A stretch of 64,000 nucleotides of DNA. It comes from Batillaria attramentaria (lineage: Eukaryota; Mollusca; Gastropoda; Batillariidae). The stretch lies in NCBI GenBank assembly GCA_018292915.2, contig JACVVK020000285.1, positions 290,001 to 354,000 of the forward strand, in the 5' to 3' direction. The notes under the pieces were generated by a model. That model saw nothing but the letters and a program-made list of their open reading frames with translations. It was not told the DNA's origin and searched no databases. Position 1 is the first letter of the stretch. The number at the start of each line of letters is the position of its first letter. Shown here piece after piece: positions 4,038 to 49,252 of the stretch. A program made the translations under genes and the position numbers.

Positions 4038-5073
4038 TCACACCGTTGAATTCTTTTGAAAAATGGACAAAAAGTCAATGAAACCTTGTCTAAGCGCTTC
4101 ATACTTAATGTCGGTTGCAGTATGAAACAAAATCACAGAGACACTTAGCAAAATGAAGCTGAAATACATGCCGCAGAATACTGGAAAGAATTCGATGCAT
4201 GGCGTATTCGCCAGTCTTGACATCATTGTACGGTTGAAACAAAAGAAAGTGTTTGTTTCCATAGGAGCTTTTTCTGTTCCTGGAATATGAATTTCCACTG
4301 CTTCTTTCCGATTTCCAGAGTTCATTTCTGAGCCAATGTCTTTTCTTGAAGTTCCGCAGCTTTCGACGGATGTAGGTCCTTCGTATCTTCGCGCAGTTGC
4401 AGGACTGCAAGTTGACTCTGGCATCACCGTTCTGCTTGACGTGCCGGACGATCTCGTCAAGGAGAATCTGCTTTTGCGTAGCCACGATCCGACCTGCGAA
4501 ATTAAAATCCTATAGATACCACTTTCTGTCAACAGCAACGTACCATTCTGAGATTTTAGACAGTATAGTTGCAGAGCATTTTATATGTCAACGTTGTCTC
4601 CCTACAGACTGGGTAATTAAATAGAAAATAACTAGGCCCGAAATTGAACAGCAGCCTGGCCCACCCCTGGTTAAAAGGAAAAACAATCAGGCCACGAGTA
4701 GACCGGCCAATCTCCAGACCGCTAAAGCCAGAAATGAACATTCTGTCCAACGATACAAGCATATTTGGACAGATAAAGAGGCCTGAAGACTTGGAATACA
4801 AGATTCTTCCGGGAGCCCACCTTTTTCACAGGAGCTGCAAACATGGCAACGGGAGGGCTGGCCAGTGGGAGGTCACAGGTGCACGGCAAGCCCACAGACA
4901 CGATGTTTTTCAGACTTTTTTCATCAGGGCATTTCATGTTGTACCGCCGAAGGAGGGATCTCAAAAGTTCCGTCAGAGCTTCAACTTCTTGGTCCGATCG
5001 CTCGCAAAACGCGCTGAAAAGCGCCAGCCATACAGACTCTGTTTCAAAGGTCCCTGAAATGATGTCTCTGAAG

Positions 5074-5153
<80 letters not shown>

Positions 5154-6281
5154 TCAGTACACGCACCTGATGCGGAAACTTTCGAGAATGATCTCACGTA
5201 CAAGTCTGACAGAAAAGCGGAGAGAATGCCAGATCATTGTTTACTACCTTTCAACTTGTGATGGATTATTTCGTAAAGCAGAGGGTGGGGGGTGGGTGGG
5301 TGTTAGGGAGTTTAACGTCCTTTTCCACCACGTAAGGGTGATATCAAAGACGGGGCAACGAGAAAAAGGCCAGCACAAATATTTGGCCCCAGCCAGGATT
5401 CGAACTCACGACCCGTGCTTTGAGAGTCCAACGCTCTACCATTCGACTATCCCGGCGCCCCTTAGTAAAGCAGAGAGAAGAACGTTCAAATCAAATCAAA
5501 TGTTAAAAACACATCATCTTACAACTGATATTGTCCGTATACGCAGTACACAGAGAGGAGACAGAGAGAAAGGTCAGGTACCCATAGTCTTCGAAGTCCA
5601 AGAAGTCCTTGTGATACAGCATGTCAGCCATTGAGGTTGCCCGGATGCGACTTTGGATAGCGTGCCGCAGACATTTCTTCACCAGTTCTTTTGCTTTGGT
5701 GTCATCTTGTTCCTTGTCTTGCCTGAAGCGTTTGGGAATGATGTGTCCATACTTCTTGCATAGTTCTGGGGCAACTTTGGACATGAAATCTTCCAGTGGT
5801 ATTTTGTTCAAAATGAACCAGAGTTTTCTGGCCTGAAATAAAGCACAGATAACAACTTGTCAGTATACTCTTTGCCATCGGCCGTATGATATTTCTTATT
5901 TTATGTGTACATTTTTTTTTAAACAAATATCACATGGAAGCACGTGTACTTTGATATGACTGAAACACGAAAAAAAAACCCCAGTAAGTCCTTTGACGTC
6001 ATTTTAGGTGTGGGGGGGGGGGGGACCATCAGTGTCTTTCCTCTTGAAATCACCTCTTCTGCCCCGGGTCTTTCCGAGTGAGTTCATCTATTTGCATTTT
6101 CTTTCACCCACCTGGTCTTTACGGGTCAAGACGTCCTTTCCAGAGAGAGACTCGTTGTCAGTGTCCGTGAGGAGGTAGCTGGCATACAGCGTGTCCAGGA
6201 ACCCGTCTTCTCTCGGGTCAACCTTTTTTATGAACTCCGGCAAGATTTCCTTCATCATGTCGTGGAGGTCTTTCTCTGTAC
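4038..6281 (-). CDS. Gene D: CARD-like protein with short Ser/Thr tail and C-terminal hydrophobic segment (5' end not found)
   Basis: Exons on the minus strand: 6281-6112, 5832-5582, 5067-4821, 4493-4038 (stop TGA at 4040-4038). All are bounded by AG acceptors and GT donors, with phases 1/0/2/0. The first two exons encode the CARD-like fold, with FLDTLYASYLLTDTDNESL matching the helix 2-4 region of CARDs, then ARKLWFIL after the junction. Exon 2 also has CLRH where paralogs have CxxC. Exon 3 ends with LPCTC, the CxC motif. The last exon is only 151 residues: a Ser/Thr-rich segment, then a 20-22-residue hydrophobic run (FFPVFCGMYFSFILLSVSVI) followed by about 30 residues. It lacks the long linker and C-terminal block of A, B and C. 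The CARD intron is phase 0 instead of 2. A leader exon like those of A-C was not located, so the start is unknown. The hydrophobic tail could be a membrane anchor, as in MAVS-type CARD adaptors, but that is inference. Confidence 0.7.
5078..5151. repeat. (AC)n microsatellite forming the pyrimidine tract of a splice acceptor
   Basis: On the minus strand this is (TG)n followed by TTCTTCAG, directly abutting the exon of gene D that starts at 5067. Confidence 0.9.
5284..5464 (-). mobile_element. SINE family 1, full length, 11-bp TSD, in an intron of gene D
   Basis: The copy is in reverse orientation. The reversed B box (GGATTCGAACTCACGA) and A box (CTCTACCATTCGACTA) are intact. Identical GTAAAGCAGAG target duplications lie at 5273-5283 and 5465-5475. 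Confidence 0.9.
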
Positions 6282-6670
6282 CTGGTAATAATGAATGAAG
6301 CACAGGGCATAAAACCCGGCCATTTAGGTCATGGAAAATCCAAATGAATGGCCATGGAGAGGATGCGTACTCGGCTGCATAAATAAAATGATAAGTTGAT
6401 GTAGGTTTAGTGCAGTGTTTTGAAATGCAGTTTCACGCAAAATAAACTTGAGACATTTGTTTTTGGCACGGTATCCAAGGAAACAGTATGTCACTATTGT
6501 TATGCTAAGGTAGGGTAAGGCAAGTGAAAGCTCCCTAGTTTGCTCACGTTTATTTTGCGTGGGACTGAACAGTGTGCACAGCCAGCTGTATGAAATTGAA
6601 CAAACTGAGCATACTACTGAGTAGGTGAATGTTATTATATTTTTAATGATAACGGAGAAGATGACAAGAA

Positions 6671-6672
<2 letters not shown>

Positions 6673-7031: not shown

Positions 7032-7177
7032 AATACTTACAAATATTGAGAGTTACTTCACACTGCATTCCAAGCATGCAGTCAGTTTCGTCTGCCGTCA
7101 TCGTTTTCCGTCCGTGTGTTGCTCAGGATATCTGTCAAGAAATGTAGACTTCATCTGAGCCTGACGTATACCATTTA

Positions 7178-10392: not shown

Positions 10393-13300
10393 TCAAAACT
10401 TATCAAGAAACTTTTGAATGCAAACAGCAAGTGTCTTCAGCAGTTCGTCGTGACAAGGATTTTCCTGCGATTGGGTGACGTTCGGAAGCTTTTCCACCAA
10501 CTCGTTCATGGTGTCGCTGACCCGCAACAATACGTCCCGCGCAGCAGCTTGAACTTCCCAATGGGTTTGCTCTGTACAGTGCGTGTTCACGGTATGAAGG
10601 AAGATATTGCACATGGTGAAAGCTTTATGCCAAACGAGCAACTCCTTGCAAAGTCCGTCAATGGCTTCAAACCTTTGCTGTGACTGCTGGAGGAGAGACT
10701 GTCCGTCAGACGACGAGGGAACTTGCGATGTGGTCACCAGCTCATTCATCTTTGCAAGGATACCTACGCACAACATATGCATGCATAAAAGTCCATATTA
10801 AGTCTCTGCAATGACAGATATTTGATTGGTCCAAACATGCAAGCCACATCATAATAACTACAACAATAATAATAATACACAAGAAGAAGAAGAAAAAAAG
10901 AAGAACAACAACAACAACATAACATTCTTGTATAGCGCAGTGTCCCCACAAAGTGGGAAATGATATTTTTGGAAACGGACTGAAGCCTGCAAGAAACAAC
11001 AACAGAAAAAAAATTGTCGAAAGGGTGTTTATTTTGGGAGGTTAATCATGAAATAAATACTAGCTAGGTAGGCCAAGAAAGTGAAAGCATTCGCTCAGTC
11101 CTGTTATCCTTTCAATTCTCAATGGTAGACAGCCTGATACCGACGATGTTCTGGTAACGCTGCTGGTGCCCGTGATGAACTAATATGAAAGTGTACGTCA
11201 CTGACCATCTATACTCACCTTTGTATTCGTCCTCCACTTCAGAGCATGCGCGGACGAGATCTCCTAGCACTTCCTTCACGTCAGGGCTCACCGATTCAAG
11301 CATATCAGCGAGTGTTTCTGCAGTAGGATTGGTTGTCTCCACATACTGGTGCAGTTCATCGAGGTCACCGTCCTGCAAAACTAATTGATCCAGATCTATT
11401 TCCAAAGGGTTGTCCGGGTCTCCTTCTCCCTGACTCTCCGTGGAATCCGATTTTGGCGAGGCGTTTTCAGAAGGACCCGATGTTCCCAAGTCTCGGTCAC
11501 TATCTCTAACGCCTTCTTCTTCATCTGGCTTCGAATCATGAGGGCTGTCACCTGTGACATTTCCTGCGACACCCGCAGACCAGCCACTCTTGCATGTTGT
11601 TACCTGCTCCTCAGTAACTGAGGTCGTTTCATCGTCACGGATGTCGCTTGCTTCTTCTTGACGGCTCGGTGAGGTCTCAGTTTTACAGTACTGTTCGTTT
11701 TCTTTCGACTGCATGCCGTTGAAAGATAACCGTCTCGACTCGTGTGCTCTAGGCTGTGTTCGGCCGAAAAGACCTTCACTAACAGCATCCACGATTGACA
11801 CACGTTTTTTTGACGATGGGCGGATTGAAATATGTTTACTCTTCTGTCCTGAGGCAGCATCGTCTTCTGCAAAAGCTTTCTTCATCCTTGTTCCCGACCA
11901 AGTCTGAATGTCTTGCAAGGGGCTTTTTCCCTCCCGATGTTGACTCGATACCGATCGCATGTTTCTGGCGGATGGGCTTTCCACCGGTTCTTTTAGGACA
12001 GTGTTTTCACTTACTGTTGATAAAGTGTCAGAGAGATCGTCTATGCTGGATGACGACCCTGGAAACAAGGAACGCACTGAGGGTCTGCTTGATGAGAGCG
12101 AAGACCGCCGGGACGACAGGGTCGAGAAGAAACTTGAGAGCTGAAAATAAGTAACACCCCAATATACAATACAATGCAATACTACACAGCACAATAGAAC
12201 TTTATTGCCTGCTTCTGCAGAAATTTGCATTCACACAGTACAATAGAACTTTATTGCCTGCTTCTGCAGAAATTTGCATTCACACAGTACAATAAAACTT
12301 TATTGCCTGCTTCTGCAGAAATTTGCATTCACACAGTACAATAACTTTATTGCCTGCTTCTGCAGAAATTTGCATTCACACAGTACAATAAAACTTTATT
12401 GCCTGCTTCTGCAGAAATTTGCATTCACACAGTACAATAAAACTTTATTGCCTGCTTCTGCAGAAATTTGCATTCACACAGTACAATAAACTTTATTGCC
12501 TGCTTCTGCAGAAATTTGCATTCACACAGTACAATAAACTTTATTGCCTGCTTCTGCAGAAATTTGCATTCACACAGTACAATAGAACTTTATTGCCTGC
12601 TTCTGCAGAAATTTGCATTCACACAGTACAAGAAAACTTTATTGCTGCTTCTGCAGAAATTTGCATTCACACACAGTACAAGAAAACTTTATTGCCTGCT
12701 TCTGCAGAAATTTGCATTCACACAGCACAATAGAACTTTATTGCCTGCTTCTGCAGAAATTTGCATTCACACAGCACAATAGAACTTTATTGCCTGCTTC
12801 TGCAGAAATTTGCATTCACACAGTACAATAGAACTTTATTGCCTGCTTCTGCAGAAATTTGCATTCACACAGTACAATAAAACTTTATTGCCTGCTTCTG
12901 CAGAAATTTGCATTCACACAGTACAATAAACTTTATTGCCTGCTTCTGCAGAAATTTGCATTCACACAGTACAATAGAACTTTATTGCCTGCTTCTGCAG
13001 AAATTTGCATTCACACAGTACAATAGAACTTTATTGCCTGCTTCTGCAGAAATTTGCATTCACACAGTACAATAGAACTTTATTGCCTGCTTCTGCAGAA
13101 ATTTGCATTCACACAGTACAAGAAAACTTTATTGCCTGCTTCTGCAGAAATTTGCATTCACACAGTACAGAAAACTTTATTGCCTGCTTCTGCAGAAATT
13201 TGCATTCACACAGTACAAGAAAACTTTATTGCCTGCTTCTGCAGAAATTTGCATTCACACAGTACAAGAAAACTTTATTGCCTGCTTCTGCAGAAATTTG

Positions 13301-14052: not shown

Positions 14053-14997
14053 CCCTCTCTCTCTCTCGCTCTCTCTCAGTAGACGTCTTAATAATCTGTA
14101 CCTGTACGTATCAAAATTCATAACTCCATGTCGGTACAAGAACCCAGCCAGATAGCTTGATGCAGGTAAATATCGATAAAGGTCTGTGGCTTAATACTGT
14201 GCTTCCACTGAAAGAACATGTACGCCCCAAAAGCTTTATAAAGTTACCATCAGTACACACTTATTTAGGTGACATTTGCGATGAGATAATGAAATTGGCT
14301 CCTAGTACTAATACAAGAGAAATTTGCTTGTCCTAGAAAATATACAAAGGACAGAATCCAAGCATCACCACTCACACATCCACTATTCAAAAGAATAAAA
14401 AAAATAAACAAGCTGTACAGGCATAGATACTTCAAAAGAGAATAAAAATGCGACATGGTTATCGTGCTGTGTTATCTATTCTGCGTAACAGCCTGGTATT
14501 GTCTGACAAGATGCAACTGGCCTCAAACACGCACTCACAGTTTTCTCTTTTGTTTTGTTTTGTTTGTGTTTGTTTTGTTTTGTTTTGATTTGTTTTTTGT
14601 CTGTTTTTTGTTTTTTCTTTGTTGTTTCCACCCCCCCCCCCCCCATTTACCTCTGTGGGTGTGAGACTTCCACGCTTTGGCTCAGCCGGAAAGCATCGAC
14701 AGGGAAATCCTTGGGTAATGAGGTCAACAAGGTCATCGGGCACGTGCAGGCTATGGTCAGAAAGCATCCTCTTCATTTCTGGTCTGTAACGTTGTGCGTC
14801 TGGCCGTGAAATTCTTGCAAAAGCATCCAGTGTGTCATTCCATTGCTGATCGTCACAGTATTTGTCTTTTGTCAGGTTGCTGCACAAAAATGCATACAGT
14901 GTGAAAAAAAAAATCAAGCCTTCCCCCCCCCCCCTACCCTTTTCGCTACATACACACTCACACTGTCACACACACGCACGATTTTTACTTGTTGATC

Positions 14998-15320: not shown

Positions 15321-18127
15321 CCCCCCCCTCTCTCTCTCTCTCTTAGTAGACGTCTTAATAATCTGTACCTGTACGTATCAAAATTCATCACTCCATGTCG
15401 GTACAAGAACCCAGCCACTTCTGACATCCGGAGGCGACGACGTAGCGCGCAACGCAGACAGTGTGGGTTTTCTTCCTTCTCGTCCGGCCCACTCACCTTG
15501 TGGACAACCTCTGACTTTGACCTGTACATGAATTGTCGTTTCCAGAACTCCGCCGGTATAATGAACCCGGCTTTTTCGCAAAGCACTGGGAGCGCATCTC
15601 TGACGAAGACTTCATGGCTGATTTTGCACAGAATTTTCCAAAGGTGCCTGAAAATCAATACATTGCATTTTGACGGAACATACCTTTCGTGGCAAGTGTA
15701 TGGTAGATATTCATATATTGCATAGCCATCGGTAGATATTCAGCCTGTCCGCTTGCCAAAACAAGTGCCTTACTGCGTTTCTGCCATCAGACGTTAAGTA
15801 TACTGCATAATAAGTGTGATGTGGATAGATCTAGCACTACAGCCATTTCAAAAATAAGTGAAGGAAAATTTAGAAAATGAAGGGTGGGGTGGTGGTGTTT
15901 AGGGGTACGGGTTTAAACGTCCTTTTCTACCACATAGAGTGATATCGAAGACGGGCAACAATGAAAAAAGCCAGCGCAAATAGAAAATGAATGCGAAAGT
16001 CAGTGAAGATGCAATGATGATAATTAAATGCGTCCATTTTTAACAGGAGAGAAAAACAATTGTCACAGCGATTCAAACCTAGCACGCTCTCGTCGATTGC
16101 CGCGGTTCCTGGGATCGAGGGATTCGTTGTCGATGTCATTGATGACGTTGCGAGCGATCAGAGCGTCCAGTAGCCAGACTCGTGAATCTCCACTTTGGAG
16201 ACAAACGGCTCCAGTATCGCCTTCATCAGTTTCTCCACATCGTTCTTGGACTCTACAAATTCATGGCGGAAATCCAGGTGTGAACACTGACGTCTATTGC
16301 CAAACAAATTACAGTTTTCCCGACCAAATCTCCAAACCAGACCATACGGGGCCAGGCTAAACTAAGTTAAGTAATGGATCTAGGTCTGTAGGTAAGCCAG
16401 AACACAGGGCCCGATTGTAAAAGTCGAGGTTAATTTAACCCACCACTACGGGCCCAACCCAGACTAGGACAAAAGAAACCAGAAAACAGAATTATATTTA
16501 AAGAAAAAAAAAAAAAAAGGAGGCGAAGAAAGGAAGAAATAAATCCTTCTATAACGGTTTAGGCATCTTGCTGGAATGGGCCCGCTTCCTGATTTAAAAC
16601 AAAAAAAAAAAACAACAGAAAATTTATTCCTAGAGCTAGTTTAGTTCGATTTTAGACTCTAACATGCGGAGCCAGCAAACCAACAAAAAGGAAATGGGAC
16701 AACCGGGACAGAACAGGGTGAATGAGTGCTTAAGGGTTCATCCTCCTTTTCCCACCATGTAAGGGTGATACCGAAGACGGGGCAACGAGGAAAACGCCAA
16801 CACCATTTTTTTTTTTTTTTTGCTCCCAGTCAGGATTGGAATTCACGACCCGAACATTGAAAGTCCACTGTTCTACCGCGTGCCTTTCCCAGCTCCCCCA
16901 GACCAGACCAGAAAAATTACACGAAACAAAAGGACAAAACACCCCCCCCAAAAAAAAAAAAAAAAAAAAAAAACTCAGGGATTTGCTCCCATCTCCGCCG
17001 CCCCCCCCCCCCTTTTGTCGTGTCACATTATGGTTTTAGCGTTTATATGTACAGATATTTCAGTCCGTTAATAACCAGACAAACAACAACAACAACAATC
17101 CAACTTGCACATGTATGCGTTGCAAGGCCCTAATTTTTTATGTTGTGATTTTCACTGTGTTCCAGTTGAATGGAGCTAAAGAAACATAATTTTATGAAGT
17201 ATATATTTCGTAATGGGGCCATGATCAAATTTTTCTTGGTTATGAAAGAATCCCTATGATTATGCCTATAACTGACAACTGGGCCCGTATGTAGAACTCG
17301 GGCCTAACCTAGACTAGGACAAAAGAAACCCCAATACAAATTTAAATAAAACAGGAAGTGGAGAGAGAAAGACAAAAATCCTGTAACGGCATAAGCACCT
17401 TGCTGAATGGGCCCGCTTCCTGATTTACAGAACAACAGAAAATGTAATCCTAGAGCTAGCTTAGTTCGAAGTTAGACTCTTACCCAGGGCTAAACTCCCT
17501 AACCCCGACTTTTACATGCGGACCCTGAGCTTTTCTTGGCGTAAAAGAAACTGTCAAATAGTAATGACTTGGCCAAAGCACACCTACGGATTATGCATAC
17601 CCTTGAAAACTGAGCAATTCTTCAGTAGAAGTCCATAAAGACTTTTAGAGACGTCGAAAGCAAACCAAGAGATCATAATTATGTCAATACTGCGTGACAG
17701 CGGGCTGGTTTCCATTATGAGCGGGGTCTGTGTTTTGAGACCGTTTCCAAAACAGGTCCTGGGCCCGCATGTGAAAGTCGGGGTTAGGGAGTTTAGCCCC
17801 GGGTTAGAGTCTAGCCTCGAACTAAACTAACTGTTGTTGTTTTGTTTTAAATCAGGAAGCGGGTCCATTCCAGCAAGGTGTCTGTGCCGTTATAGAAGGA
17901 TTTTTCTCCGCTTCCTTTTTTAATTTAATTTTGTTTCGTCCTAGTCTGGGTTAGGTCCGTAGACGTGGGTTAAATTAACCTCGGGTTTTACATACGGGCC
18001 CTGGAGTGATTGTCCAGACACTAAAGGTGCCGCATGAGTGGGTTCTGTTCGGTTTCCGCGCAAATGAACACAAACAAAAGTCAGCTGTGCAAGTTTATTG
18101 ATCTACTTTTGACCGCAACTGTTCACT

Positions 18128-24724: not shown

Positions 24725-25699
24725 TCAGAACCCATCGAGATACTTTCTGATGCCGACATCAAGCCCTTCTGAGAAGTCCCCTGGAAGATTCGTAGTTTCC
24801 AGGCACAGCACCGAAAACGTTTCAAGTTTTTGTAGCGTTCCAGACAGGGAGGCCTCAACGAGCAGCAGCAGATCGCTCACAACTGTCCCTGTCTTCTCAC
24901 GCGTTCTGTCAGTCTGCACCCTGGGAGGCATGTTGAGGTACACGCTGCACAATATGAATGTTCTCTGTAATACCAGCAGGTTCTCGCACAGTGTACAGAT
25001 GCCAGTCAACTCTTCCTGTAACCGGAGAAAGGGTGAAGGAGATTCAAGGCCGATAGGTGTCTTGGATTTCAGTGTCGCCAGCATTTCGTCTGTCGTTTCA
25101 CGGATGCCTGCAATTATTGAAACAAAAAGCAGTTGAAGTTCTCGTTATGGACAGGCTCGACAAGGCAAGAAGGCCTCCGATTCATAAAACAGCCAACACA
25201 CCAAATAACACTACACTACACTACACTACACTACACTACACTACACTACACTACACTACGGGTGGGTGTTGGGTGGGTGGGTGGGTGGGTGTTGGGTGGG
25301 TGGGTGGGTGGGTGTTGGGTGGTTTAACGTCTTTTTCCACCACTTACGGGTGATATCAAAGACGGGGCATCGATGAAAAAGCCAGCACAAAATTTGGCCC
25401 CAGCCGGGATACGAACTCACGACCCGAGCATTGAGGGTCCAACGCTCTACCATTCGGCCACCTCGGCTCCCCACAATACAATACAATACAATACAATACA
25501 ATACATGTTTATTGTCCTAAAAAAGGATATTCCTCTTACAGCCCGCTGAGCATTCAACAACAGAAATGTACAAAAAAAACCTACGCTGTTCAATAAATTA
25601 CATAAAACAATAGTAAAAATAATGAGCCTCAGGCCCTAAAAGAAGGAGATACAACATACAATAAAAAATTCGCTATTTTCACACCTCACACCACTAACC

Positions 25700-32549: not shown

Positions 32550-33020
32550 CTCTGAGTCTGTACTTCAGAGACGGGCGCCTTATAAGTATGATGTAGTATT
32601 ATTAATATTACTACATGAGAGTGCATTTAGCTATAGTCTGTGTTCCGAACGCTTCTTATCCAACTGACAGATCGGTAAGAAGCTATCGCATCAAGGTACG
32701 CACCCATGAGTCTTAAAATCGATCATCCCGATCCTGTACAGAAAGTCAGCCAGTTTTTCAGGGCGATCTCGGGACACGATGGCGCATCTGGTACAGACTT
32801 TCTCTTTATCCGCTGTGCTCCCTGTGCGTGCAGTCTGGCCAGAGCAGCCGTCGGTAGGGAGGTCCGATGCCGCAGTTTTGAAGAGCTTTCCTGGGATGAT
32901 GAAACCAACCTTCTCGCACAGGACCGGCAGTACCTTCTGAATGAACACATCGTGATCGATGCCGTGCAGAATTTTCCAGAGATGTCTGCAGAAAACAATT
33001 CACTTGCTTTGTTCTGCTCA

Positions 33021-33074: not shown

Positions 33075-35397
33075 TTTTAAACAAATTTCGCACAGGGGCC
33101 TAACATTGTCTTATCTGAATCGAATGTGTTGCTTGGGTATCAGCCGGATAAGTTTAGAAACGGAGATGTGCAAATTATAAATCACTTACTACTCATTGCC
33201 AAAATGGTAATAAAAAAGTTTAAATATGGTCATACTATAGACATTTGTGCCTTGTTTGAATATGAGGTTGAACTTAGAAAAATTTGATTCGTACTTGTGA
33301 AATTGCCAACACGTACTGTTTCAACATGACCTGTCATTTAAATACATGCAAACTTACATCCACAAAAACATAAACGCACACATAAATGAACAGACACCAT
33401 AATTTCAAACACTGGGAAAAGATTGTACATCCTTTAATGAACTGTCCATTACAAAAAACAAAACAAACAAAAACAGTCAACACATTTCTGTACGATGCAT
33501 ATCGGTTATTTAAAAAAAAATCACTTGCTTTGAAAGACTTGATAATTATATTCTAGTTTTTCTTCTGTGGACCCTAAGACATCTACTCGAAGATTTGTAC
33601 ATTTACTGCTAACCTTGGACCACAACGTTCTTTCCGGTCAAATCTCCTCAGCTCTTTCAACAGACAAAGCAAGAACAACCACTCAAACCAGCGGAGAAAC
33701 CAACTAACCGAAAAAGCAAACAAAAGCGACATAAAAGGGACAGAAACCACTTAACTTTCACAAAGGACAGCACGGGTCAACGTTTTGGCTTTCGCCTTCC
33801 TCAGGACACAAACAAATGGGACATAACTTCAACAAACAAAAGGTAACTCTGCTGACATACTGACATACACGGCGCGGGGGAAAAAACGGTGGGGGAGAAA
33901 AGGACCAGAAAACAATAGTTAAAACATCACAACACCCATCCTTTGGTGACAGAAGACCATTGACTGTGTGTGAACTTTAAAAAAAGTGGGAGAGAAAAGA
34001 ACAGAAAAAATTGTAACTTAAAAAGGAAAAATCGAAGAAACAAGAAAAACAGAACAAACTCTTTTCATCATCATCATCTTCTTCTTCATTGTCCGTTAAT
34101 GTGTGTACATGGAAGAGAAGATCTACTTCATCTCGGGTTGTGTAGATTATTGCAGGCCACGTTCTAGTCTAACCTTTGCGACAAAACCTCAACAACTGTG
34201 AATCAAATAAAAATTGCCCTCCCCCCCCCCCCCCAACCTCTCTCTCTCTTTCTCTCTATGTTTGGAGGGAGGGGTGGGGGTGGTGGGGTGATGAGGAGGA
34301 CAAACTGGTGAGTAGGTGGTCGTGCACGTGTGCACGCATTAATTAGCACTTTCCACTACAAGCGTGCACAGCAAAATTAATATGCTTAGTTGTACTGCAT
34401 GGTAGCTGTGAGCGCTGCTCACTCCCTATGCCCACTAACTGTAATAATTATGTACCTTGCCCGCTCAGTGCGTGTAGGGTGGTGGAGTGCGTTCAGCGAC
34501 TCGTTGTCGATGTCCGTGAGAACCTGGCTCGCCAACAGCGCATCCAGCAGTCCATCTTCGACGATGTTCACTTTCTCCGTGAATGGTTTCAGGATATCTT
34601 TCAAAAACCTTTGCACGTCGCCGTTTGTCACTGAAATCATATCGTCACGTAAAGAAGATTTATGGAGAATGAAATCCAGAGTTTACGGATACGTCCTAAG
34701 GAAGACAACAAGTCAACACATGCACGCGAAAATTAAATGTCTTTAGCTTGAGACTACAGAATCAAGTAGCAGGGAGAGTAGTGTCATTAACCTTCGCCGT
34801 ACGTCGCCTTAAAACTTGCGCGCCGTACGTCGTGGGTACTAACGCACCCATGCTTTTAAAGAAGGAAAAAAAGCGTGCCATAATCAATGTTTTTGTTTCC
34901 TTTTTTTTTAAAGCATGGGTGGTTTTGCATCCACCACGTACAGCGAGGGTTAAAATCAAAGCAGACAAGTAAGCACGGCCATTTGCTTTGCACATCCTTC
35001 CAGCACAGTGAAGGTTATGCTTTATATATTGCGGGTACTTATATTCTGCCAGTTTTAGCTTACTTACAGTATACATACAAAATTTAACGGATAAGGACGT
35101 GTTGATTACTGGCCAAAGACGTAACTGGGGTGTGGTTTTGTGAACTTATCAACCACTAAACTTTTTTTAACTTCAGAGAGAGAGAGAGAGAGAGAGAGAG
35201 TCAAATGAATCTTTATTTTTCAACGGTAGAGGAAGTTAACGTGACAGTCTGTCGTTGCTAATTCTAAATTCTAAAGACATCTGCTTAAGGAAATTAACAC
35301 TTAGCATGAAGTAAAAATAATGATATTACTAACTGATAATATTATCAACATATTACAAAAATAAAACCAACAGAACAACCAGCCATACCCACCAGCG

Positions 35398-35823: not shown

Positions 35824-35887
35824 CCAACGGTTTCAAGTCCTGATAATCTCTGTAAGCACTTCCTCGTACAGGCTGTGCTTCGGCCAT
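24725..35887 (-). CDS. Gene B: CARD-like long-linker protein
   Basis: Exons on the minus strand: 35887-35824, 34630-34456, 32985-32704, 28429-28195, 27342-26193, 25107-24725 (stop TGA). Phases are 1,2,2,0,1 and the total is 762 codons in frame. The leader MAEAQPVRG... ends in YRDYQDLKPL and has a good start context (AAGATGG). CARD-like fold, residues about 22-125: LLDALLASQVLTDIDNESL, then RHLWKILHGIDHDVF after the intron. CTRC at about residue 152, then KLADFLYRIGMIDFKTH; the next exon ends at about residue 252 and includes GFPCRC. Residues 252-635 are an acidic Ser-rich linker with RARRSILTSVCDGLF and, near the end, DLEDLCQFVSSDVTIEDL. The last 127 residues are the conserved C-terminal block ending in IRKYLDGF. 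The last intron uses a GC donor (G|GCAAGT). Introns hold an intact RTE LINE and two SINEs. Confidence 0.82.
25208..25258. repeat. (ACTAC)n pentanucleotide repeat
   Basis: About ten units, directly followed by GGGTGGGT repeats that form the tail of a reversed SINE. Confidence 0.9.
25259..25473 (-). mobile_element. SINE family 1 with an expanded tail
   Basis: Reversed copy with intact boxes (GGATACGAACTCACGA; CTCTACCATTCGGCCA). Its 3' CACCCACCC tail has expanded to about 60 bp. Confidence 0.85.
25699..25830. repeat. (CT)n(CA)n(CGCA)n compound microsatellite
   Basis: CT, then CA, then CGCA units, in intron 5 of gene B. Confidence 0.95.
25837..25946 (-). mobile_element. SINE family 2 fragment
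   Basis: Reverse middle section: CATTACAATCACGTGGTGCG, CAGCTATTTAAGTTTC and GGGCTGAAAATTTCC. Confidence 0.6.
26187..26192 (-). promoter_or_regulatory. GC splice donor (GCAAGT) of gene B intron 5
   Basis: The paralogous site is GTGAGT in A and GTAAGC in C. All three are phase 1 after an aligned final codon. The rest of the site matches the donor consensus strongly, as is usual for GC-AG introns. Confidence 0.75.
26193..27342 (-). CDS. Gene B exon 5 (long linker exon)
   Basis: The acceptor TCTTTTTCAG precedes 27342; the exon is phase 0 at the start and phase 1 at the end. It encodes 383 codons rich in Ser, Asp, Glu and Gln with no recognised domain. Its end (NQNLVGLTQDYIQLHQQYN) aligns with the ends of exon 5 in A and C, which fixes the GC donor position. 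Reading past that donor meets a stop 4 codons later. Confidence 0.82.
27836..27992 (-). mobile_element. SINE family 1, diverged
   Basis: Reverse copy with decayed head: GGGTTTAACGTTCTTTACC, AAAAAGCCAGCACATATG and CAACGCTCTACCAGTCTG. Confidence 0.65.
28021..28187. repeat. (CA)n(CGCA)n(GTCT)n(CT)n array ending at the exon 4 donor of gene B
   Basis: On the minus strand the (GA)n part begins 8 bases after the donor CGG|GTAAGA of exon 28429-28195. Confidence 0.92.
28605..28785 (-). mobile_element. SINE family 1, full length
   Basis: Reverse copy with boxes GGATTCAAACTCACGA and CTATCCATTCGGCTAT. Near-identical flanks AAAATGAATGG and AAAATTAATGG look like the target duplication. Confidence 0.82.
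29101..32395 (+). mobile_element. Full-length RTE-type LINE with 11-bp TSD in intron 3 of gene B
   Basis: GTAAGATCACC is duplicated exactly at 29090-29100 and 32396-32406. The element is about 3.3 kb with a short 5' leader, a single intact ORF (29378-32386) and a 3' end of TAAG-type microsatellite instead of a long 3' UTR, as in RTE elements. It is antisense to gene B. Perfect duplications and an intact ORF indicate a recent insertion. Confidence 0.9.
29378..32386 (+). CDS. RTE LINE polyprotein: APE endonuclease and reverse transcriptase
   Basis: The product is 1,002 residues. The N-terminal apurinic-type endonuclease runs over about residues 25-285, with ATWNIRTM, LSETRW, MGDFNAKIG and the terminal SSDHH catalytic motif. 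The reverse transcriptase spans about 470-780: KAAGPDEIPAEAI, NYRGIMLLS, INFIDYEKAFDSV, GVRQGCLLSP and the catalytic FADDLALL. The C-terminal part has the GHTLRKP and GKRKRGRPRNSWRRD motifs of RTE-like elements, which databases often call craniofacial development protein 2-like. It would nick target DNA and copy its own RNA. The ATG at 29378 is the first in frame; the frame has no internal stop. Confidence 0.93.
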   Translation: MTHCSESRKEAARPTPLLTPRTTTRVATWNIRTMYEVGRTIQVAREMKNYKIGVLGLSETRWLQTGQLRFSSGEHLLYSGHTEDGAPHTEGVALMLAPEAQRALIGWEPVNSRIITAKFITKKKDIKLNIIQCYAPTNDAEEEKKDDFYQQLQTVIDRGGAKDMTILMGDFNAKIGSDNTGYEDTMGTHGLGQMNENGERFANFCALNQLVIGGSIFPHKRIHKATWRSPDHVTENQIDHICISRKFRRSWRDVRVMRGADVSSDHHLLATTLRLRLKRHTNANNTRTRYNVGLLRNTDTQAAFRISLSNRFQPLQDLIEDSEMDIETHWEHSKKLWHDTCEEVLGKRKTQHKEWISADTIQKLEVRKEKKTALNTSRTRRSKAKAQEEYTAADREVKRSTRKDKRDYIDNLASQAEEAARQGNLKDLYQVTKKLAGKFQQTDKPVKDKNGHPLTTTEEQLKRWAEHFRELLNRPIPEAPPDIPPAETELPINCDKPSKAEIRKAIMTLRNGKAAGPDEIPAEAIKADTETAVNMLHSLFSKIWEKEEVPAQWKEGIVIKLPKKGDLRDCSNYRGIMLLSVPGKVLNRILLERMREAVDPMLRDQQAGFRRNRSCADQIASLRIIVEQSLEWNSPLYINFIDYEKAFDSVDREALWKLLRHYGVPGKIISLIQCTYQDMSCRIAHAGQLSESFEVKTGVRQGCLLSPFLFLLVIDWIMKTTTAGRKNGIQWTLWTQLDDLDFADDLALLSHSHSQMQDKTTRLEATSAGTGLKINRKKTELMKINTTANTPVTVGGEPIREVESFVYLGSVVDGQGGTDRDVTARIGKARAAMVMLKNVWASKVVSIRTKLRIFNSNVKSVLLYGCETWRTTKTMQQKIQTFLNTCLRRIFNIRWPEKIRNEELWERAGQEPVAKQILRRKWGWIGHTLRKPASSTTRQALTWNPQGKRKRGRPRNSWRRDTEAELCKQGTNWTGVARLAQNRVRWRRVVDGLCSTWSQGPK
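32500..32550. repeat. (GT)n microsatellite
   Basis: About 22 GT units followed by GCGCGC. Confidence 0.95.
33031..33071. repeat. (TA)n microsatellite
   Basis: About 20 TA units, 45 bases upstream of the exon 3 acceptor of gene B. Confidence 0.95.
33718..33812 (-). mobile_element. Penelope-like terminal fragment with hammerhead-like motif
   Basis: It shares GCGACATAAAAGGGACAG and CACTTAACTTTCACAAAGG with 48797-48943. On the minus strand it carries CTGAGGAAGGCGAAAGCC, then AAAACGTTGAC. One core G (GAAAC) is changed to A. Confidence 0.5.
35177..35471. repeat. (GA)n and (AC)n tracts upstream of a SINE in gene B intron 1
   Basis: GA runs at 35177-35200 and 35436-35471, and AC at 35402-35432. 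Confidence 0.9.
35472..35640 (-). mobile_element. SINE family 1 inserted in a (GA)n tract
   Basis: Full reversed copy (GGATACGAACTCACTA; CTCTACCATTCGGCCA) with GA repeats on both sides. Confidence 0.88.
35641..35818. repeat. Two copies of a 66-bp GA-linked unit abutting the exon 1 donor of gene B
   Basis: GGAAATGGTTTATTCGG ... GGCTGTCGG ... TTGGGGAAGGT occurs twice with (GA)n between. The last GA run touches the donor G|GTAAGT at 35823. Confidence 0.85.
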
Positions 35888-40267: not shown

Positions 40268-43200
40268 TCAAACCCCGTCAAGAAATGACCAGACCTTCGA
40301 ACCAAACTCATCACAAAGACATCTGTCAATGTCAGTATTTTCTAACCCTTTCCTCACAGAATGCAGTTTTCCGGTCACATCCAGCACGGCGCATTCTATA
40401 AGAACGAGTAAGTCCCCTGCTGCTTGATCTGCTTTCAAGCATGTCCGTTCCGTGGTCAGTTTGGTCGTTATTTCGAGGTAGATGCTGCACAGAATGAGCG
40501 TTCTTCCATAGTCGAGCAAGTCTTTGCAGAAATGGTCGATGTCCGCCAAGTGTTGCTGAATCTCGGTGCTGCTTTCGTAGTCGCCAGACTGAAGTTTGTC
40601 CACGATATTGTAAAGTGTCTCGCACAAGTCTGAAACAGAAAGAATGATTGTGCATTATGGTTATGGTTATGGTGATATCTGTTGGCTCGGGAGGCTGTTC
40701 AGCAATGCATCCCTGGAAAAAAACAAACAAGCTCGAACCTCGTGCACATCAGAAATATTCAACCCACAAAATTCAAAAACAAATGCATTTCAAAAATAAA
40801 ATTAAATTCCTGAGATGGGCCTACGTACCACGTGATTGTAATGTGTTCCCTGGTGTCCAGTGTGTGGAAGAATGCGTGTGATTCACGTGAGCGTGCGTGT
40901 TGAGTTTAGCTCATGGCGCTTTGGGCCAAATATTTGGGATAGAGCGCCTATATTAATGTGGTTATTATTATTATGTTTGGAAGCTGAAATCTTCCGTCAT
41001 CTTGTAAAAGGGTCTAAACGGCTTGAATATGATAAGCACGCAGACCTTTTTTCCAAGCGATAGCAGAGATGTTGAACACGTCCATGGACGTTATCATCCG
41101 AAAGATTCATAGAAAGGCACACACAGATAAAATAAACTGTTTACGTCTGTTCAGACAGATGATCCGCTTACCTTGGTACAGCTGTTCCTGCTCGTAGTGA
41201 TCATGGATGAGGTCGCTGAGGTTATTTCTGGCGTCGACATTCAGCACCGCAGCTCTTCTGAGGAGTTCCGCAAGTTCATCTATTGTGACCTCAGATGTCA
41301 CGTACTCATGCAAATGTTTCAGGTCATTGTTTTGTCTCGCTGCCTCAAGGTCCCGAGTCTGTACCGCGTCCGATTCTTCTGGCTGGTTCTGGTTGCCTTG
41401 GTTACTGGTGTGGTCGGATTCCCCAATGCCATCCGTGTAGCTGTGTTCGAATGGCACCACCTCGCTCATACGATGTGAATTAGTTTCCTCATCTTCATCG
41501 TCCCAGTTGTGTTCATAGTTCTGACGTTCCGTTGCAAGAAAAGATGTGCAGGTTGAACACACCGTCCACTCTGAGACGACCCCCGTATTCTGCTGTCTCT
41601 CGTATTCTCCTTTGTACAAAGTGGTTTGTATGTTTCGCAGATTCTTCGTCAGATTGACACCAGGTGGCGCCCATGCATCATCGGCTTGTGAACCAAAGAC
41701 TCGACTGTTGGCAGATGCACTCAGTTCATCTCCTCCGGCAGCCTGGCTGGACAAAGTCTGTGATTTAGCTCCACGAACTATGTTCTCGGTTTGGCTTTGA
41801 GGAGAAACGGCTGCCGCAGAAACGGATTCTGTGCGCAGATTCAACATATCTGCTGTGTGTGCTCCGCCCTGTCTGCCAACAGTCTGGCAACGCTTCGTTC
41901 CCAAAGCGCTACGCTCCTGTTGGACCTGCGGGCGTCTGTGTGTGGAGGGTCGGGGAAAAGTGCCACCGCGATGGCAAGAACGAGTGGACACTGCAGAGCA
42001 TCGTCCAGTGGGTAATGTGTACTCTACTGAAGGCTCTCTATCTGGTCTACTCTGTTCCCTGACTGTATCACTTTGCTCAAATGTGCCCTGCATATCAGAG
42101 GAACTTGTGTCCTGTGATTCAGGGATACTTGAGCCCTGTGAATCAGGGATACCCGTACCCTGTGTATCAGGGGTACCTGTGCCCTGTGAATCAGGAATAT
42201 TTATGTCCTGTGTATGAGGGATAGTTGAGCCCTGTGTATCAGCGATAACTGTGCCCTGTGTATCAGGGATACTTGTGCCCTGCGTATCACGAATACTTGT
42301 ACCCAGTCTATCAGGGATACTATAACCCTTTGCATCAGGGGTCCCAGAAACATACGACTGATCTGAAGTCACGTTTTCCTTGACATCCTCCTTGCCCAGC
42401 AGCTCACGGAGTATTGCCGTTACCAGCTTTGTATCGTCCAAAGGAAGCCGAACAGACATGTGTTTAGTGCGTCCGGACTTTCGTGAATCTTCCTCTCTGA
42501 GAAGATGTTGCTGAAAGGTTCTTTCCGACCACGTTTTGGCCCGTTCTTTCCTCTCGTCCACACGTCTAACTTCACTCTTGTGATCACTTTCAGCACAGCA
42601 ACATTCGGTAGTTCCGTGCAGCTCCACGTCCACCTCGGGAGGTAGACCAACCCCATCGGTGGGAATTCCCGATTTGCCACGTTCGGGGCTTTGTGGAGGT
42701 GCTTGTACTTTCGGGTGAGTTTCTTCTGTCGCATGTGGGTCGTTGCAGGAAATCCTGAGGTTGTCGCGACGAGCTTCGTTGTAAGAGAGAATTTCGTTCG
42801 CTATGGATGCATCCGAGAACCGACGGGCTGAGAGTGTCTCGTACTGCAGTCGGAGCTGCAACGAAAGGAAGTGACCAGATGAAGTATACTCGTCTAAAAC
42901 TATGTTTTCCACAAATTTAATAATAAGAATAATCGCATTGATTTAGGCGCTTTATCCAAGATATTTGGCTCAGAGCGCCGCGAGCTAAACCCAACACGCA
43001 CACTTACGTGAATCACACGTATTCTCTCAGACACTGAACACACAACAATCACGTGTTGCGAGGGTCTAGTTCAGGAATTTAAGTTTCGGAATTTTAGAAT
43101 TGCATTTTTTTTTTTTTTTTTTTGTTGTCGGCTGAACATTTCGAACGCAGAGGGGAAGGAAGCCGGAGTACCAGGAGAGAACCCCCGACGGTCGGCCTGA

Positions 43201-43933: not shown

Positions 43934-46900
43934 CCGCAAAATCACCGGCACCCGTAGTATAGTGGTTAGCACTTCGGACCATGGACCGGGAGACCCGGGT
44001 TCGAGTCCCAGCCGAGGCAAGCGGGATTTTTCCTACCTAGGTCGGCTCCTGCCCAGAGCGGGTGTGCTATGGACCCAATGGGGAGGCTGTTGCCACACAG
44101 CCGAGATTCACCCACTTCCAAGAGTTGGGGCAGCAAACAACAACAACAACACGCAAAATCAAATACCAACCCCCCCCCCCCCCAAAAAAAAAAAAAAAAA
44201 AAAAACCAAAAAAAAAAAAAAAACCCAAAAAAAACAACAACAAACAAACAGTCGAACGCCAATGCTAAATAGAGCTTCTCTGGTGGCTCAGAGTGGATTA
44301 CAACGAGAGAGGCCCACCAGATGTTTCGCGTCTCGTAAAGCTACCTTGTTGAACGTCTTGCAAAAGCTGAAACATCTCCTGACATACCACTCTGAGCTAT
44401 CGGATCAATTTGCTTCCGCAACCAAATTTCCAAAAGGAAATATGAAGGACAAAATACGAACCCGTGTTTTCTTCAAACTGTCCATGCTGCTCCCAATTGC
44501 CAGAGAGCAGCGACAAGGAAGACCCTGAGTCATCAGGTCCACAAGGTCACAGGGCACGTGCAGATCGTGGGTCGACAGAATTTTCTCCATTTCCGGTTGC
44601 AGACGGGACGCTGTGGGTCGTGGAAGGTTTTCAAAAGCCCTGAATACCTCATGCCAGTTGGGTGGCGCAGTTCGGAAGTGTCTTGTCACATCACTGAAAA
44701 CAAGAAAAAAAAGCAACCTTTCGTAAAATGTAATATACTCTCCCTCCGATCCTCCTTTAACCTGCCGGGCAGCATGAATAGCCGATGATATAGCGTTGGA
44801 TTTTCAATGCTCGAGTCTTCGGTTCAAATCCCAGCAGGGGCCAAATAATTATTTGTGCAGGCTTTATTTTCTCGTTGCCCCGTCTTAGATATCACACTTA
44901 CCTGGTGGAACAGGACGTTAATCTCCTAAACACCCACCCACCCTTCAACCTGCCAAACCCTGGAACTCACCACCTTTCTTCCCCAGCTGGGCTATCCTGC
45001 CTCCACTACAAACCATACGTAAAAATATGTTTCTACACGCATCACGCGACACCCCGACACGCTACACACTACACCACTAATCCTCAGGTACGATATCCCG
45101 GATACGACACCGATACTCTGCTGCACCCCATTTACGACACCAAACACCCCGTTTCACCTGCTTTGCGACACGGCTACGTCCAGCTTATGACACAAACACA
45201 AACTGGGGTAGGTCGGGGATGGAGGGAGTTGATATATCAGGATTTTCCACTGCACATTACTAGAAGATTTCTGTGGAAAAAAAAAAATAATGATAAAAAA
45301 AACCCACCAAAACCCAACTGAATTCAGTAAGGTCCCTGCAAGAAAGGAATTGGGCAGAGAGATGGTGGAGGTCAGCAGTGGCTGGTTCGGTTGTGTGATA
45401 CTTAGTGCATTCTCTCAAGAAAGATTTTTTTTTATGTAAACAGGGAAGCGCCCCCAAAGTCGCACCCGTGAAGTGGGTGAGTCTCGGCTGTGTGGCAACA
45501 GCCTCCCCACTGGGTCCATAGCACGCCCGCTCTTGGTAGGAGCCGACCTAAAAGTCTCGCTGGCCTCGGCTGGGATTCGAACCCGGGTCTCCCGGTTCAT
45601 TGTCCGATTAAGTGCTAACCACTGCACTACGGGGTCCAGTTTTAATTTTGGCTCCAATCAGTTGCCTGTGAGTATGACAAAAAGTTTATAATCAGTTTAA
45701 AAATAGAATACCTGTGAGTGTCGTCATCAATGAGATCAAAACGATACAGGAGGTCAGCCATTTTGGGCAGCCGAACTCTTCTCTTGATGTCGCATCTTAC
45801 GCAGTATGACGTTTGTTCTGGGCGATGACCTTGGCATGCCTTTGACCTTGACATTGACCCAGTTTTCCAGAACCGAGCTGGTATTAGGAAGCCTGCCTTC
45901 TCGCACAAGACTGGCAACGCTTTCTGGGTGAATTTTTCACAGCTGATCCCGCGAAGAATGTCCAGTAGTCGTCTGCAGCAGATGATTATTCAAAGAGTAT
46001 TGTTAGACATACGGTAGTTCGGGTAACCCATGAGTGATCGGGGAAGTCACATCCTGGGTTCGGGATCCAAGCGGAGAACCTTTTTGTGGCTACATCTTTT
46101 ACGTGGTGGATAAGCACAGGAAAACGTCAGGCTAATGTAAGAAACATGGCAGCGTACCTAAGCCGTTCGATGATTTTTACTAGCTGAGCTTGATTGAAGT
46201 TAGAATGGGATCCCCTATGGCGCACGGCGAACCTCACCTTGCAGTGTTAGCGTGGGACATTTTCCACTGAGACACACACGCACTGTAGCTTGAAGGGCTA
46301 AAGTGTGTATTTTCGCGGAGCGTTATTCAGCGTCAGTTGTGTCCTATCATTATTTATACATTGGTCCAGCCACCACAGAGATCTTAATGTGTTGATTTTT
46401 TTCCTATGGTATCCAACATGACCCTCGATTACAGGAGAGGGATATCATGACTAGACATACGGTATCTCACACCAGTCGGAAGCTACGGAAGCCTGCGATC
46501 GCCAGGGACTATGCTATTCTGCTTTAGATGTTTGTATGGATAAAATGGCCAGATTGTGCACAGTATTGGTGGCAGACTGTTTGAGTCTTACCTTGCACGT
46601 TCATGACGTGTGGGGAGATGGCTCCCACTGAGAGATTCGTTGTCGTCGTCATTGATGATGCCGCAGGAGATGAGAGCATCGACCAAGTTGGACTGGTGAA
46701 TGTCGATTTTGGCGACGAAAGGCGTCCATATTGCCTTCAGCAGTTCGTGGACACCTTCCTTAGTTTCTGGAGACAAACAAGATTAATAAACAACACCGAC
46801 AACAACAAAAACACACAAAAAATAAACAAAAAACCAACCCCAAACAAACAAACAAAAACAAGCAAATACACAAACAACCAAGATAAACCTAAACTTATAA

Positions 46901-48612: not shown

Positions 48613-48662
<50 letters not shown>

Positions 48663-49112
48663 GACGACGGAGGGTTATAACATAGACTCCCATTGTTACA
48701 CAAGGGAGCCAAAAATGAGAAATAAGAAAAAGCCCCCCTTCCCTCCCAACAACCCCACCCCCCCCCCCCCTCCAACCCCACCCCTGTCATCCAACTAAAA
48801 GCGACATAAAAGGGACAGAAACCACTTAACTTTCACAAAGGACGGCAGATGTTTATGTCCTGAGGAAGGCGAAAGCCGAAACGTTAACCTATGCCGTCCT
48901 TTGTGAAAGTTAAGTGGTTTCTGTCCCTTTTATGTCGCTTTTATTTGCTTAACTTGTAACCACTTGGCAGTCATTACCGTTTCCTTTTCTACGTCATCCA
49001 ACCCCCTCCACCACCTCCAACACCATCACCAGCAACACGATGAAGCTTCCCGTACGCCCTCCAGCCCGCCACCAGAACAACGACGCGAACACGAACACGC
49101 ACACACACACGC

Positions 49113-49160
<48 letters not shown>

Positions 49161-49252
49161 TTACCGATTGGGATCAAGTCTCGGTAATCCCTGTATGCGT
49201 TGTCACGTGTAGAGCTGACGTCATGTTGACGGTTCACATTTGATACAGCCAT
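40268..49252 (-). CDS. Gene C: CARD-like long-linker protein, complete
   Basis: Exons on the minus strand: 49252-49165, 46766-46592, 45972-45712, 44693-44462, 42855-41172, 40629-40268 (stop TGA). Phases are 1,2,2,0,1 and the total is 933 codons in frame. The leader MAVSNVNRQ... ends in YRDYRDLIPI. CARD-like fold, residues about 31-125: NLVDALISCGIINDDDNESL, PTRHERA, then RRLLDILRGISCEKF, the PTRxE+A+xLLDxL pattern typical of CARDs. Then CVRC with MADLLYRFDLIDDDTH, and LPCRC at the end of the fourth exon. Residues 252-813 are a charged linker with an 8-residue tandem repeat and the HLHEYVTSEVTIDELAELL segment. The last 120 residues are the conserved C-terminal block ending in VWSFLDGV. The donor after exon 4 is weak (GTTCGT). 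This is the best-preserved member of the cluster. Confidence 0.85.
40776..40982 (+). mobile_element. SINE family 2, 5'-truncated
   Basis: The 3' body (ACCACGTGATTGTAATGTG, GTGATTCACGTGAGCGTGCG) and an (ATT)n tail. Confidence 0.7.
41172..42855 (-). CDS. Gene C exon 5 (long linker exon)
   Basis: 561 codons, with acceptor CGTTGCAG and donor G|GTAAGC. It begins LRLQYETLSARRFSDAS and is rich in charged residues, with a KHMSVRLPLDDTKLVTA segment that aligns with the [16 protein letters not shown] segment of gene A. The tandem 8-residue repeat follows, then Cys-containing but unrecognised sequence, and the conserved helical end. Confidence 0.85.
42083..42346 (-). repeat. 24-bp coding tandem repeat in gene C exon 5
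   Basis: About eleven units encode the pattern SIPDTQGT with variants (IADTQGS, IPHTQDI, TPDTQGT, IPESQDT). The frame is kept across all units. No such repeat occurs in A or B. Confidence 0.9.
42918..43313 (-). mobile_element. SINE family 2, full length
   Basis: Reverse copy: AATAAT tail, TAGGCGCTTTATCC, GTGAATCACACGTA, ACAATCACGTGTTGCG, GGAGAGAACCCCCGACGG, then the tRNA-like head in reverse (B box GGGACTCGAACCTG, A box CTTAACCACTAGACT). Confidence 0.85.
43860..43935. repeat. C run, A-rich tract and (CAA)n
   Basis: Simple sequence upstream of the family-3 SINE. Confidence 0.9.
43947..44135 (+). mobile_element. SINE family 3 (tRNA-derived)
   Basis: Head with A box TAGTATAGTGGTTAGCAC and B box GGGTTCGAGTCCC, then a body with CAGAGCGGGTGTGCTATGG, CCCAATGGGGAGGCTGTTGC and CACAGCCGAGATTCACCC. 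A second copy is at 45435-45637. Confidence 0.82.
44768..44943 (+). mobile_element. SINE family 1, diverged, full length
   Basis: Head AGCCGATGATATAGCGTTGG and GGTTCAAATCCCAG, then body and CACCCACCC tail, in intron 3 of gene C. Confidence 0.78.
45435..45637 (-). mobile_element. SINE family 3
   Basis: Reversed copy: TCTCGGCTGTGTGGCAACAG, CCCACTGGGTCCATAGCAC, B box GGGATTCGAACCCGGGT and A box GTGCTAACCACTGCACTAC. Confidence 0.82.
46770..46940. repeat. A-rich (CAAA)n tract in gene C intron 1
   Basis: Low-complexity ACAAA and AAACA sequence directly upstream of the exon 2 acceptor. Confidence 0.85.
47196..48710 (-). mobile_element. Pearl-like HINE, right copy (inverted)
   Basis: In reverse it starts with GGCTCCCTTGTGTAAC at 48710, has (GT)n at 48612-48660 and GTCCGCAGTAAACCTTAAC, then repeated units with the TGACCTTGACCTTGAGTCA phrase, and ends CACAAGGGAGCC, hairpin GAGGC...GCCTC and CTAG at 47196-47199. 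Within the unit array near 47360-47425 an extra duplicated TTTATTATCCCAGAGGGAAA tail motif is inserted. Confidence 0.75.
48797..48943. repeat. 51-bp perfect inverted repeat with hammerhead-like loop
   Basis: The arms begin AAAAGCGACATAAAAGGG and are exact reverse complements. The spacer holds CTGAGGA (48860-48866), a GGC/GCC stem with a GAAA loop and GAAACGTT (48878-48885), reminiscent of the hammerhead motifs of Penelope-like elements. Confidence 0.8.
49103..49159. repeat. (CA)n microsatellite next to the gene C exon 1 donor
   Basis: On the minus strand the (TG)n run starts at the fourth or fifth base of the intron (G|GTAAATGTGTG). Confidence 0.93.

What the first reader, a model, noticed from the sequence alone, without database searches (positions are those of the whole stretch)
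4038..49252. Undescribed tandem cluster of four CARD-like genes
Genes D, A, B and C share exon order, intron phases and aligned motifs. Each has a split death fold whose sequence fits CARDs (in C: DNESL..., PTRHERA, RRLLDIL). The composite architecture of leader, CARD, CxxC, second helical block, CxC, long linker and C-terminal block matches no protein I know. An expanded tandem array of CARD adaptors would suit a lineage-specific innate immune or cell-death module. The exon structure is seen in the sequence. The CARD assignment is pattern-based. The function is inference.
Basis: partly seen in the sequence, partly recalled or inferred. Interest (0 to 1): 0.92.

Follow-up and report, generated by a model that had tools for sequence, protein, structure and literature searches.

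The report
Unnamed snail CARD protein gene array
This stretch of what looks like a marine snail genome carries a row of four related genes whose proteins begin with a CARD, a docking module used in immune and cell-death signalling, followed by parts that match no named family; the CARD is well supported, while what the proteins do is still a guess.

The parts
49165..49252 (-). gene C exon 1 (leader MAVSNVNRQHDVSSTRDNAYRDYRDLIPI, donor GTAAAT, phase 1)
   Evidence: shares its ending RDLIPI with A and resembles YRDYQDLKPL of B
46592..46766 (-). gene C exon 2, CARD first half
45712..45972 (-). gene C exon 3, CARD second half + CxxC + start of second helical block
   Evidence: CARD Pfam hit of joined exons 28.0 bits
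44462..44693 (-). gene C exon 4, second helical block ending in PCRC
41172..42855 (-). gene C exon 5, long Ser/Thr-rich linker with 8-residue repeats and first helix of C-terminal block
40268..40629 (-). gene C exon 6, C-terminal helical block and stop
35824..35887 (-). gene B exon 1 (leader MAEAQPVRGSAYRDYQDLKPL, donor GTAAGT, phase 1)
34456..34630 (-). gene B exon 2, CARD first half
32704..32985 (-). gene B exon 3, CARD second half + CxxC
   Evidence: joined CARD 25.9 bits
28195..28429 (-). gene B exon 4, second helical block ending in PCRC
26193..27342 (-). gene B exon 5, linker (GC donor)
24725..25107 (-). gene B exon 6, C-terminal block
18641..18749 (-). gene A exon 1 (leader [11 protein letters not shown]..., cf. 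MHKKARSFTLP of L. saxatilis; donor GTGAGT, phase 1)
16079..16252 (-). gene A exon 2, CARD first half, reading frame broken
15369..15647 (-). gene A exon 3, CARD second half + CxxC
14651..14879 (-). gene A exon 4, second helical block
11219..12140 (-). gene A exon 5, linker
10393..10763 (-). gene A exon 6, C-terminal block
6112..6281 (-). gene D exon 2, CARD first half (donor phase 0)
5582..5832 (-). gene D exon 3, CARD second half + CxxH
4821..5067 (-). gene D exon 4, divergent second block ending in PCTC
   Evidence: weak by tblastn
4038..4493 (-). gene D possible exon 5, open frame with hydrophobic tail; coding status uncertain

Best explanation
A tandem array of a snail-lineage family of CARD scaffold/adaptor proteins. 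Supported here: the N-terminal domain is a CARD. Inferred: on activation it stacks onto CARDs of an upstream sensor and of itself. The second helical block, held by a CxxC/H...CxC metal site, would be a second protein-protein domain. The disordered Ser-rich linker, which opens with an RRxS kinase-type site in C, B, A and both L. saxatilis proteins, would be a phosphorylation-tuned spacer. The C-terminal helical bundle would self-associate or recruit effectors. The array would diversify this adaptor in one lineage, with A and D possibly decaying.
Confidence: 0.6

Rival explanations
1. CARD-bearing inhibitors or decoys: the CARD caps CARD filaments or occupies partners, as ICEBERG and ARC (NOL3) do (recalled), so the family dampens rather than transmits signals.
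For: No enzyme domain or TRAF-type motif in what was scanned; NOL3 and ICEBERG appear among the weak sequence matches of the CARD profile (E 0.11 and 0.044).
Against: The proteins are far larger than known CARD-only regulators, with a second folded block, long linker and C-terminal bundle kept in an L. saxatilis relative, which suggests recruitment of something else.
Confidence: 0.2
2. A highly divergent stand-in for the molluscan MAVS adaptor (oyster MAVS is CARD + Death domain + transmembrane tail); D would be the membrane-tailed form.
For: CARD followed by a second six-helix block; D's last open frame holds a 19-residue stretch of hydropathy 2.34. MAVS could not be found in Aplysia, and its authors allow for a divergent MAVS in heterobranchs (PMC9334734, passages); oyster MAVS architecture from PMC5557890 (passages).
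Against: No membrane segment in C, B, A (exons 3-6) or the two L. saxatilis proteins (best 19-residue hydropathy 1.15-1.51). D's hydrophobic tail lies where codon usage looks non-coding. The second block was not shown to be a Death domain.
Confidence: 0.1
3. Partly dead array: the family was functional, but A (frame break) and D (missing 3' half, divergent second block) are pseudogenes, leaving B and C.
For: Frame break in A exon 2; D lacks recognisable exons 1, 5-tail and 6 and has the longest branch, 1.63.
Against: A's exons 3-6, including 921 nt of exon 5, are open with coding codon usage; a one-base difference could be an assembly error; D exons 2-4 are open and score best in the coding frame.
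Confidence: 0.35
4. An extracellular serine-rich adhesin, as the database name of the L. saxatilis relative says.
For: Only the automatic name and the Ser-rich linker (22% Ser in P0001).
Against: The three leaders show no hydrophobic signal-like stretch (read by eye); an N-terminal CARD is a cytosolic docking domain (recalled).
Confidence: 0.03

Closest known systems
Littorina saxatilis 'serine-rich adhesin for platelets-like' (P0001) and 'uncharacterized protein' (P0002)
   Same: Leader, CARD, CxxC, second block, CxC and linker; P0001 also has the C-terminal helical part. P0001 45% identity over 90% of B residues 1-230, E 1.2e-41
   Different: 30-43% identity to the four window genes over the first two domains; P0002 stops at the start of the C-terminal part
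APAF-1, CARD9, CARD11, NOD1, MDA5 and other CARDs
   Different: 12-24% identity across the CARD rows; none has the rest of the architecture (recalled)
Oyster MAVS (CgMAVS)
   Same: N-terminal CARD followed by another domain (PMC5557890, passages)
   Different: CgMAVS has a Death domain and a C-terminal transmembrane segment; C, B and A show no membrane segment
BCL10
   Same: CARD with a Ser/Thr-rich tail (recalled)
   Different: BCL10 is short and lacks the second block and helical C terminus (recalled)
CARD9/CARD11 family
   Same: CARD and a helical self-association region (recalled)
   Different: Their coiled coil follows the CARD directly (recalled); here a second globular block and about 500 low-confidence residues intervene

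Membership tests
CARD domain (PF00619) | sequence above Pfam's curated cut-off | tested here: met
   C 28.0 and B 25.9 bits against 23.9; P0002 22.6 and P0001 18.6 below it; D no hit; A not tested because exon 2 is broken
CARD domain (PF00619) | CARD-type helical bundle fold | tested here: met
CARD domain (PF00619) | homotypic CARD-CARD binding or filament formation | not testable with these tools
   needs experiment
MAVS | N-terminal CARD | tested here: met
   as above
MAVS | C-terminal transmembrane tail | tested here: not met
   best 19-residue hydropathy 1.15-1.51 in C, B, A (exons 3-6), P0001, P0002; D's possible last exon 2.34 but doubtful as coding
MAVS | TRAF-binding motif PxQxT | tested here: not met
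   none in C, B, A (exons 3-6), D last exon, P0001, P0002 by simple pattern
MAVS | Death domain after the CARD (oyster form) | tested here: inconclusive
   six predicted helices 166-251 of P0001, no Pfam hit in 6 of 6; block never folded and searched on its own
Caspases, IAPs, NLRs, RLRs with CARDs | protease, BIR/RING, NACHT or helicase domain | tested here: not met
   Pfam scans of exons 3-6 of C, B and A, exons 2-4 and last frame of D, and both relatives: only CARD nears or passes a cut-off
CARD-coiled-coil family (CARD9/10/11/14) | coiled coil directly after the CARD | tested here: not met
   in the P0001 and P0002 models a second short-helix block follows, then low-confidence chain
Tandem CARD protein | second block is itself a CARD | tested here: inconclusive
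   local profile match E 0.015, probability 2.9%; 7 of 200 column shuffles score as high locally, 89 of 200 globally

The most novel reading that the evidence does not exclude
A caenogastropod-specific family of CARD adaptors with a second, metal-braced death-fold-like domain that fills the place of the MAVS- or BCL10-type adaptors, and that diversifies by tandem duplication as an immune signalling hub.
Probability: 0.2. Interest if true: 0.75.

Novelty: new variant of a known kind. Interest (0 to 1): 0.52.

Why it matters
CARD adaptors are hubs that turn pathogen or damage sensing into inflammation or cell death (recalled). In one gastropod, Aplysia, the adaptors MAVS and STING were not found (PMC9334734, passages). 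A tandem family of large CARD proteins with an unfamiliar second domain, hidden under a misleading database name, is a concrete candidate for a lineage-specific signalling hub, and it can be tested directly in Littorina, a model genus for speciation (PMC11050657, search listing and passages) and a trematode host (recalled).

Tried and rejected
Pfam on single exons reached no cut-off (only weak chance-level names); joining exons 2 and 3 brought out the CARD. PDB sequence search with the CARD profile: the top rows are TAL effectors matched over 15-residue repeats, an artefact; then ferritin, RIPK2, USP7 and ICEBERG stand level at E 0.024-0.044, and further CARDs reach 0.37; none is significant, so this search alone does not single out CARDs. 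The earlier profile put USP7 (0.13) level with RIPK2 (0.15). Second block against PDB: best E 0.68 (zeste), a PYD at 1.5. C-terminal exon profile against PDB: nothing at E up to 1. NCBIfam: 0 of 3 proteins. Foldseek on both models: no match at E<0.001; CARD rows there have E 0.26 and above with probability mostly over 0.9. In the P0001 run the highest Z (12) belongs to generic bundles on the C-terminal part. The viral structure library gave mostly noise, with two viral CARD proteins at probability 0.98. D leader: one ORF stretch, MTADETDCMLGMQCEVTLNI (7101-7041, with a shorter start at 7077), ends in a good phase-1 donor but resembles no other leader, so it is not claimed. In the leader comparison the highest gene-to-gene scores came from translated GT microsatellites and were discounted. 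A transmembrane tail for D was left open. A tree of the first two domains supports only the two Littorina proteins together (100%; the others 28 and 40%). Attempts to align exon 6 pieces onto P0001 misplaced them, so the C-terminal part was folded without paralogue rows. Literature: ten searches, lists capped, showed no title or abstract start that describes this architecture; supplements were not read. The same automatic name occurs in a Biomphalaria gene list (PMC11699755, passages); no sequence was compared. Rfam and tRNA scans were empty. Relatives outside Littorina are not ruled out: the protein search needs shared exact words and a length window, and two of the three searches scored only the top 7,985-7,987 candidates.
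Full report
WHAT IS THERE. The finding describes four genes on the minus strand. I rebuilt each exon from the sequence with its splice sites. C: 49252-49165, 46766-46592, 45972-45712, 44693-44462, 42855-41172, 40629-40268. B: 35887-35824, 34630-34456, 32985-32704, 28429-28195, 27342-26193, 25107-24725. A: 18749-18641, 16252-16079, 15647-15369, 14879-14651, 12140-11219, 10763-10393. D: 6281-6112, 5832-5582, 5067-4821 and perhaps 4493-4038. In C, B and A the five introns have phases 1, 2, 2, 0, 1. In D the first listed exon starts in phase 1, but its donor is phase 0, a few bases from the shared position; the next two introns agree in phase (2, 0). The introns are GT-AG except the GC donor of B exon 5.

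IS IT MORE THAN CHANCE. Each gene finds the others exon by exon: with C as query, exon 3 of A at 4e-18, of B at 1e-15, of D at 1e-10; exon 4 of B at 1e-15; exon 2 of B at 3e-10; exon 6 of B at 5e-9. D's exon 4 is found only weakly (E 0.086 with C, 0.015 with P0001). Among paralogues the third codon position differs most in 20 of 21 exon pairs (exons 2-6); the exception is B-D exon 4 (first 0.67, third 0.64), and C-D exon 3 is nearly level (0.57, 0.58). In a leave-one-out codon-usage test against introns, the annotated frame was the best of three in 17 of 17 exons, sometimes narrowly (0.09 against 0.05 for C exon 4); A exon 2, the three leaders and D's last exon were not part of those 17.

INDEPENDENT SUPPORT FOR THE GENE MODEL. 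A search of 5.8 billion proteins with B (residues 1-230) returned one protein, P0001 of Littorina saxatilis, 1002 aa, 45% identity over 90% of that stretch, E 1.2e-41. A second search with an alignment added P0002 (523 aa), from a contig of the same length, 74.7 Mb, so probably the same chromosome; a third returned P0002 only. P0001 aligns with C from residue 44 to 962 (24.7% identity, 5e-52) and with B in the first two domains and the C-terminal part. Its start, MHKKARSFTLP, matches A's leader [11 protein letters not shown]. The leaders of C and B are weaker: they share the ending and a phase-1 donor only. P0001 is itself a database gene prediction.

THE REST OF THE PROTEIN. After the CARD come Cys-x-x-Cys, a compact block and Cys-x-Cys. 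In an alignment of six sequences the first Cys and both Cys of CxC are invariant; the second Cys of CxxC is Cys in five and His in D. Cys and His are both common zinc ligands, so a metal site is likely, but this is inference. The block is predicted as six helices (166-251 of P0001), with block means of pLDDT 78-97. Whether it is a second death fold is open: the local profile match to the CARD is weak (E 0.015, probability 2.9%; 7 of 200 shuffles reach it locally and 89 of 200 globally), Pfam finds nothing in 6 of 6, and the fold searches were filled by the CARD and the C-terminal bundle. The linker has pLDDT mostly below 50 and 11, 15 and 22% Ser in C, B and P0001; an RRxS motif opens it in C, B, A and both L. 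saxatilis proteins. The last 200 residues of P0001 are long helices (pLDDT about 50-80), and their matches are generic bundles.

STATE OF EACH GENE. C and B are open from leader to stop. A's exon 2 changes frame inside the CARD; this could be decay or an assembly error. D is the most divergent (30-35% identity to the other five over two domains; branch 1.63), with 18% identity in exon 4. Its last exon is doubtful: the frame that continues exon 4 ends in a hydrophobic stretch, but codon usage there is not coding-like, and in the first half the other frames score about as well. The paralogues A, B and C are about as far from each other (44-49%) as from L. saxatilis (37-43%), so the duplications are old or evolution is fast.

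HOW IT MOST LIKELY WORKS. The CARD is supported; the following is inference from the domain. The CARD docks onto, or stacks with, CARDs of a sensor or of sister proteins. The second block and the C-terminal bundle provide further contacts. The linker spaces them and can be phosphorylated. No catalytic or sensor domain was found in the exons and relatives scanned, which favours an adaptor or scaffold over a sensor or enzyme. A decoy role is the main functional rival. A MAVS-like role is attractive because MAVS was not found in Aplysia, and the authors allow for a divergent one in heterobranchs (PMC9334734, passages), and because oyster MAVS is CARD plus Death domain plus membrane tail (PMC5557890, passages). 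But C, B, A (exons 3-6) and both relatives show no membrane segment.

NOVELTY. The CARD is a known kind; the rest of the architecture reached no Pfam or NCBIfam cut-off, and no protein outside Littorina was found in the three searches made. Two littorinid genome papers were looked at by passages only; the word CARD does not occur in either main text (PMC11423352; PMC11050657). Ten literature searches with capped lists showed no description of it. That the source is a snail close to Littorina is an inference; the window's own genome could not be queried.

Noticed in passing
window 723-2064 and 47698-48602: Two arrays of a 304-bp satellite, about 90% alike and in opposite orientation: one beyond gene D, the other inside intron 1 of gene C; possibly linked to instability of the array.
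   Followed up: no
window 29306-32386 (+): An open 1026-aa LINE-type frame with endonuclease and reverse transcriptase domains (Pfam RVT_1 4.5e-33) lies antisense inside intron 3 of gene B.
   Followed up: partly
window 12184-13845: A 49-bp minisatellite, 34 copies, in the intron before exon 5 of gene A; it starts 44 bases from the exon.
   Followed up: no
window 42082-42321: A 24-bp tandem repeat inside gene C exon 5 encodes about ten copies of an 8-residue unit (like SIPDTQGT).
   Followed up: no
window 49165, 35824, 18641: In C, B and A the leader exon's donor runs straight into a (GT)n or (CT)n microsatellite.
   Followed up: no
window 5289, 25300, 35468, 39297, 39868, 49492: A dispersed repeat family containing GGATTCGAACTCACGA or close variants, which looks like a tRNA-derived SINE (the tRNA resemblance is recalled; no tRNA gene found).
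   Followed up: no
window 19913-20076 and 21268-21394: GC-rich 16-bp arrays (CCGCTAGTGCGCGGGG) in inverted orientation about 1.2 kb apart.
   Followed up: no
window 58815-60170 (+): Open frame with zinc-knuckle-like CxxC motifs, resembling a gag-type protein of a non-LTR element (recalled); no Pfam hit at E up to 0.01.
   Followed up: partly
P0001 (Littorina saxatilis): Named 'serine-rich adhesin for platelets-like' although its predicted N-terminal fold is a CARD; a misleading automatic name.
   Followed up: yes
window 14104-14157: A short second copy of the end of gene A exon 3 (88.9% over 18 aa, E 2.7e-5) downstream of exon 4.
   Followed up: no
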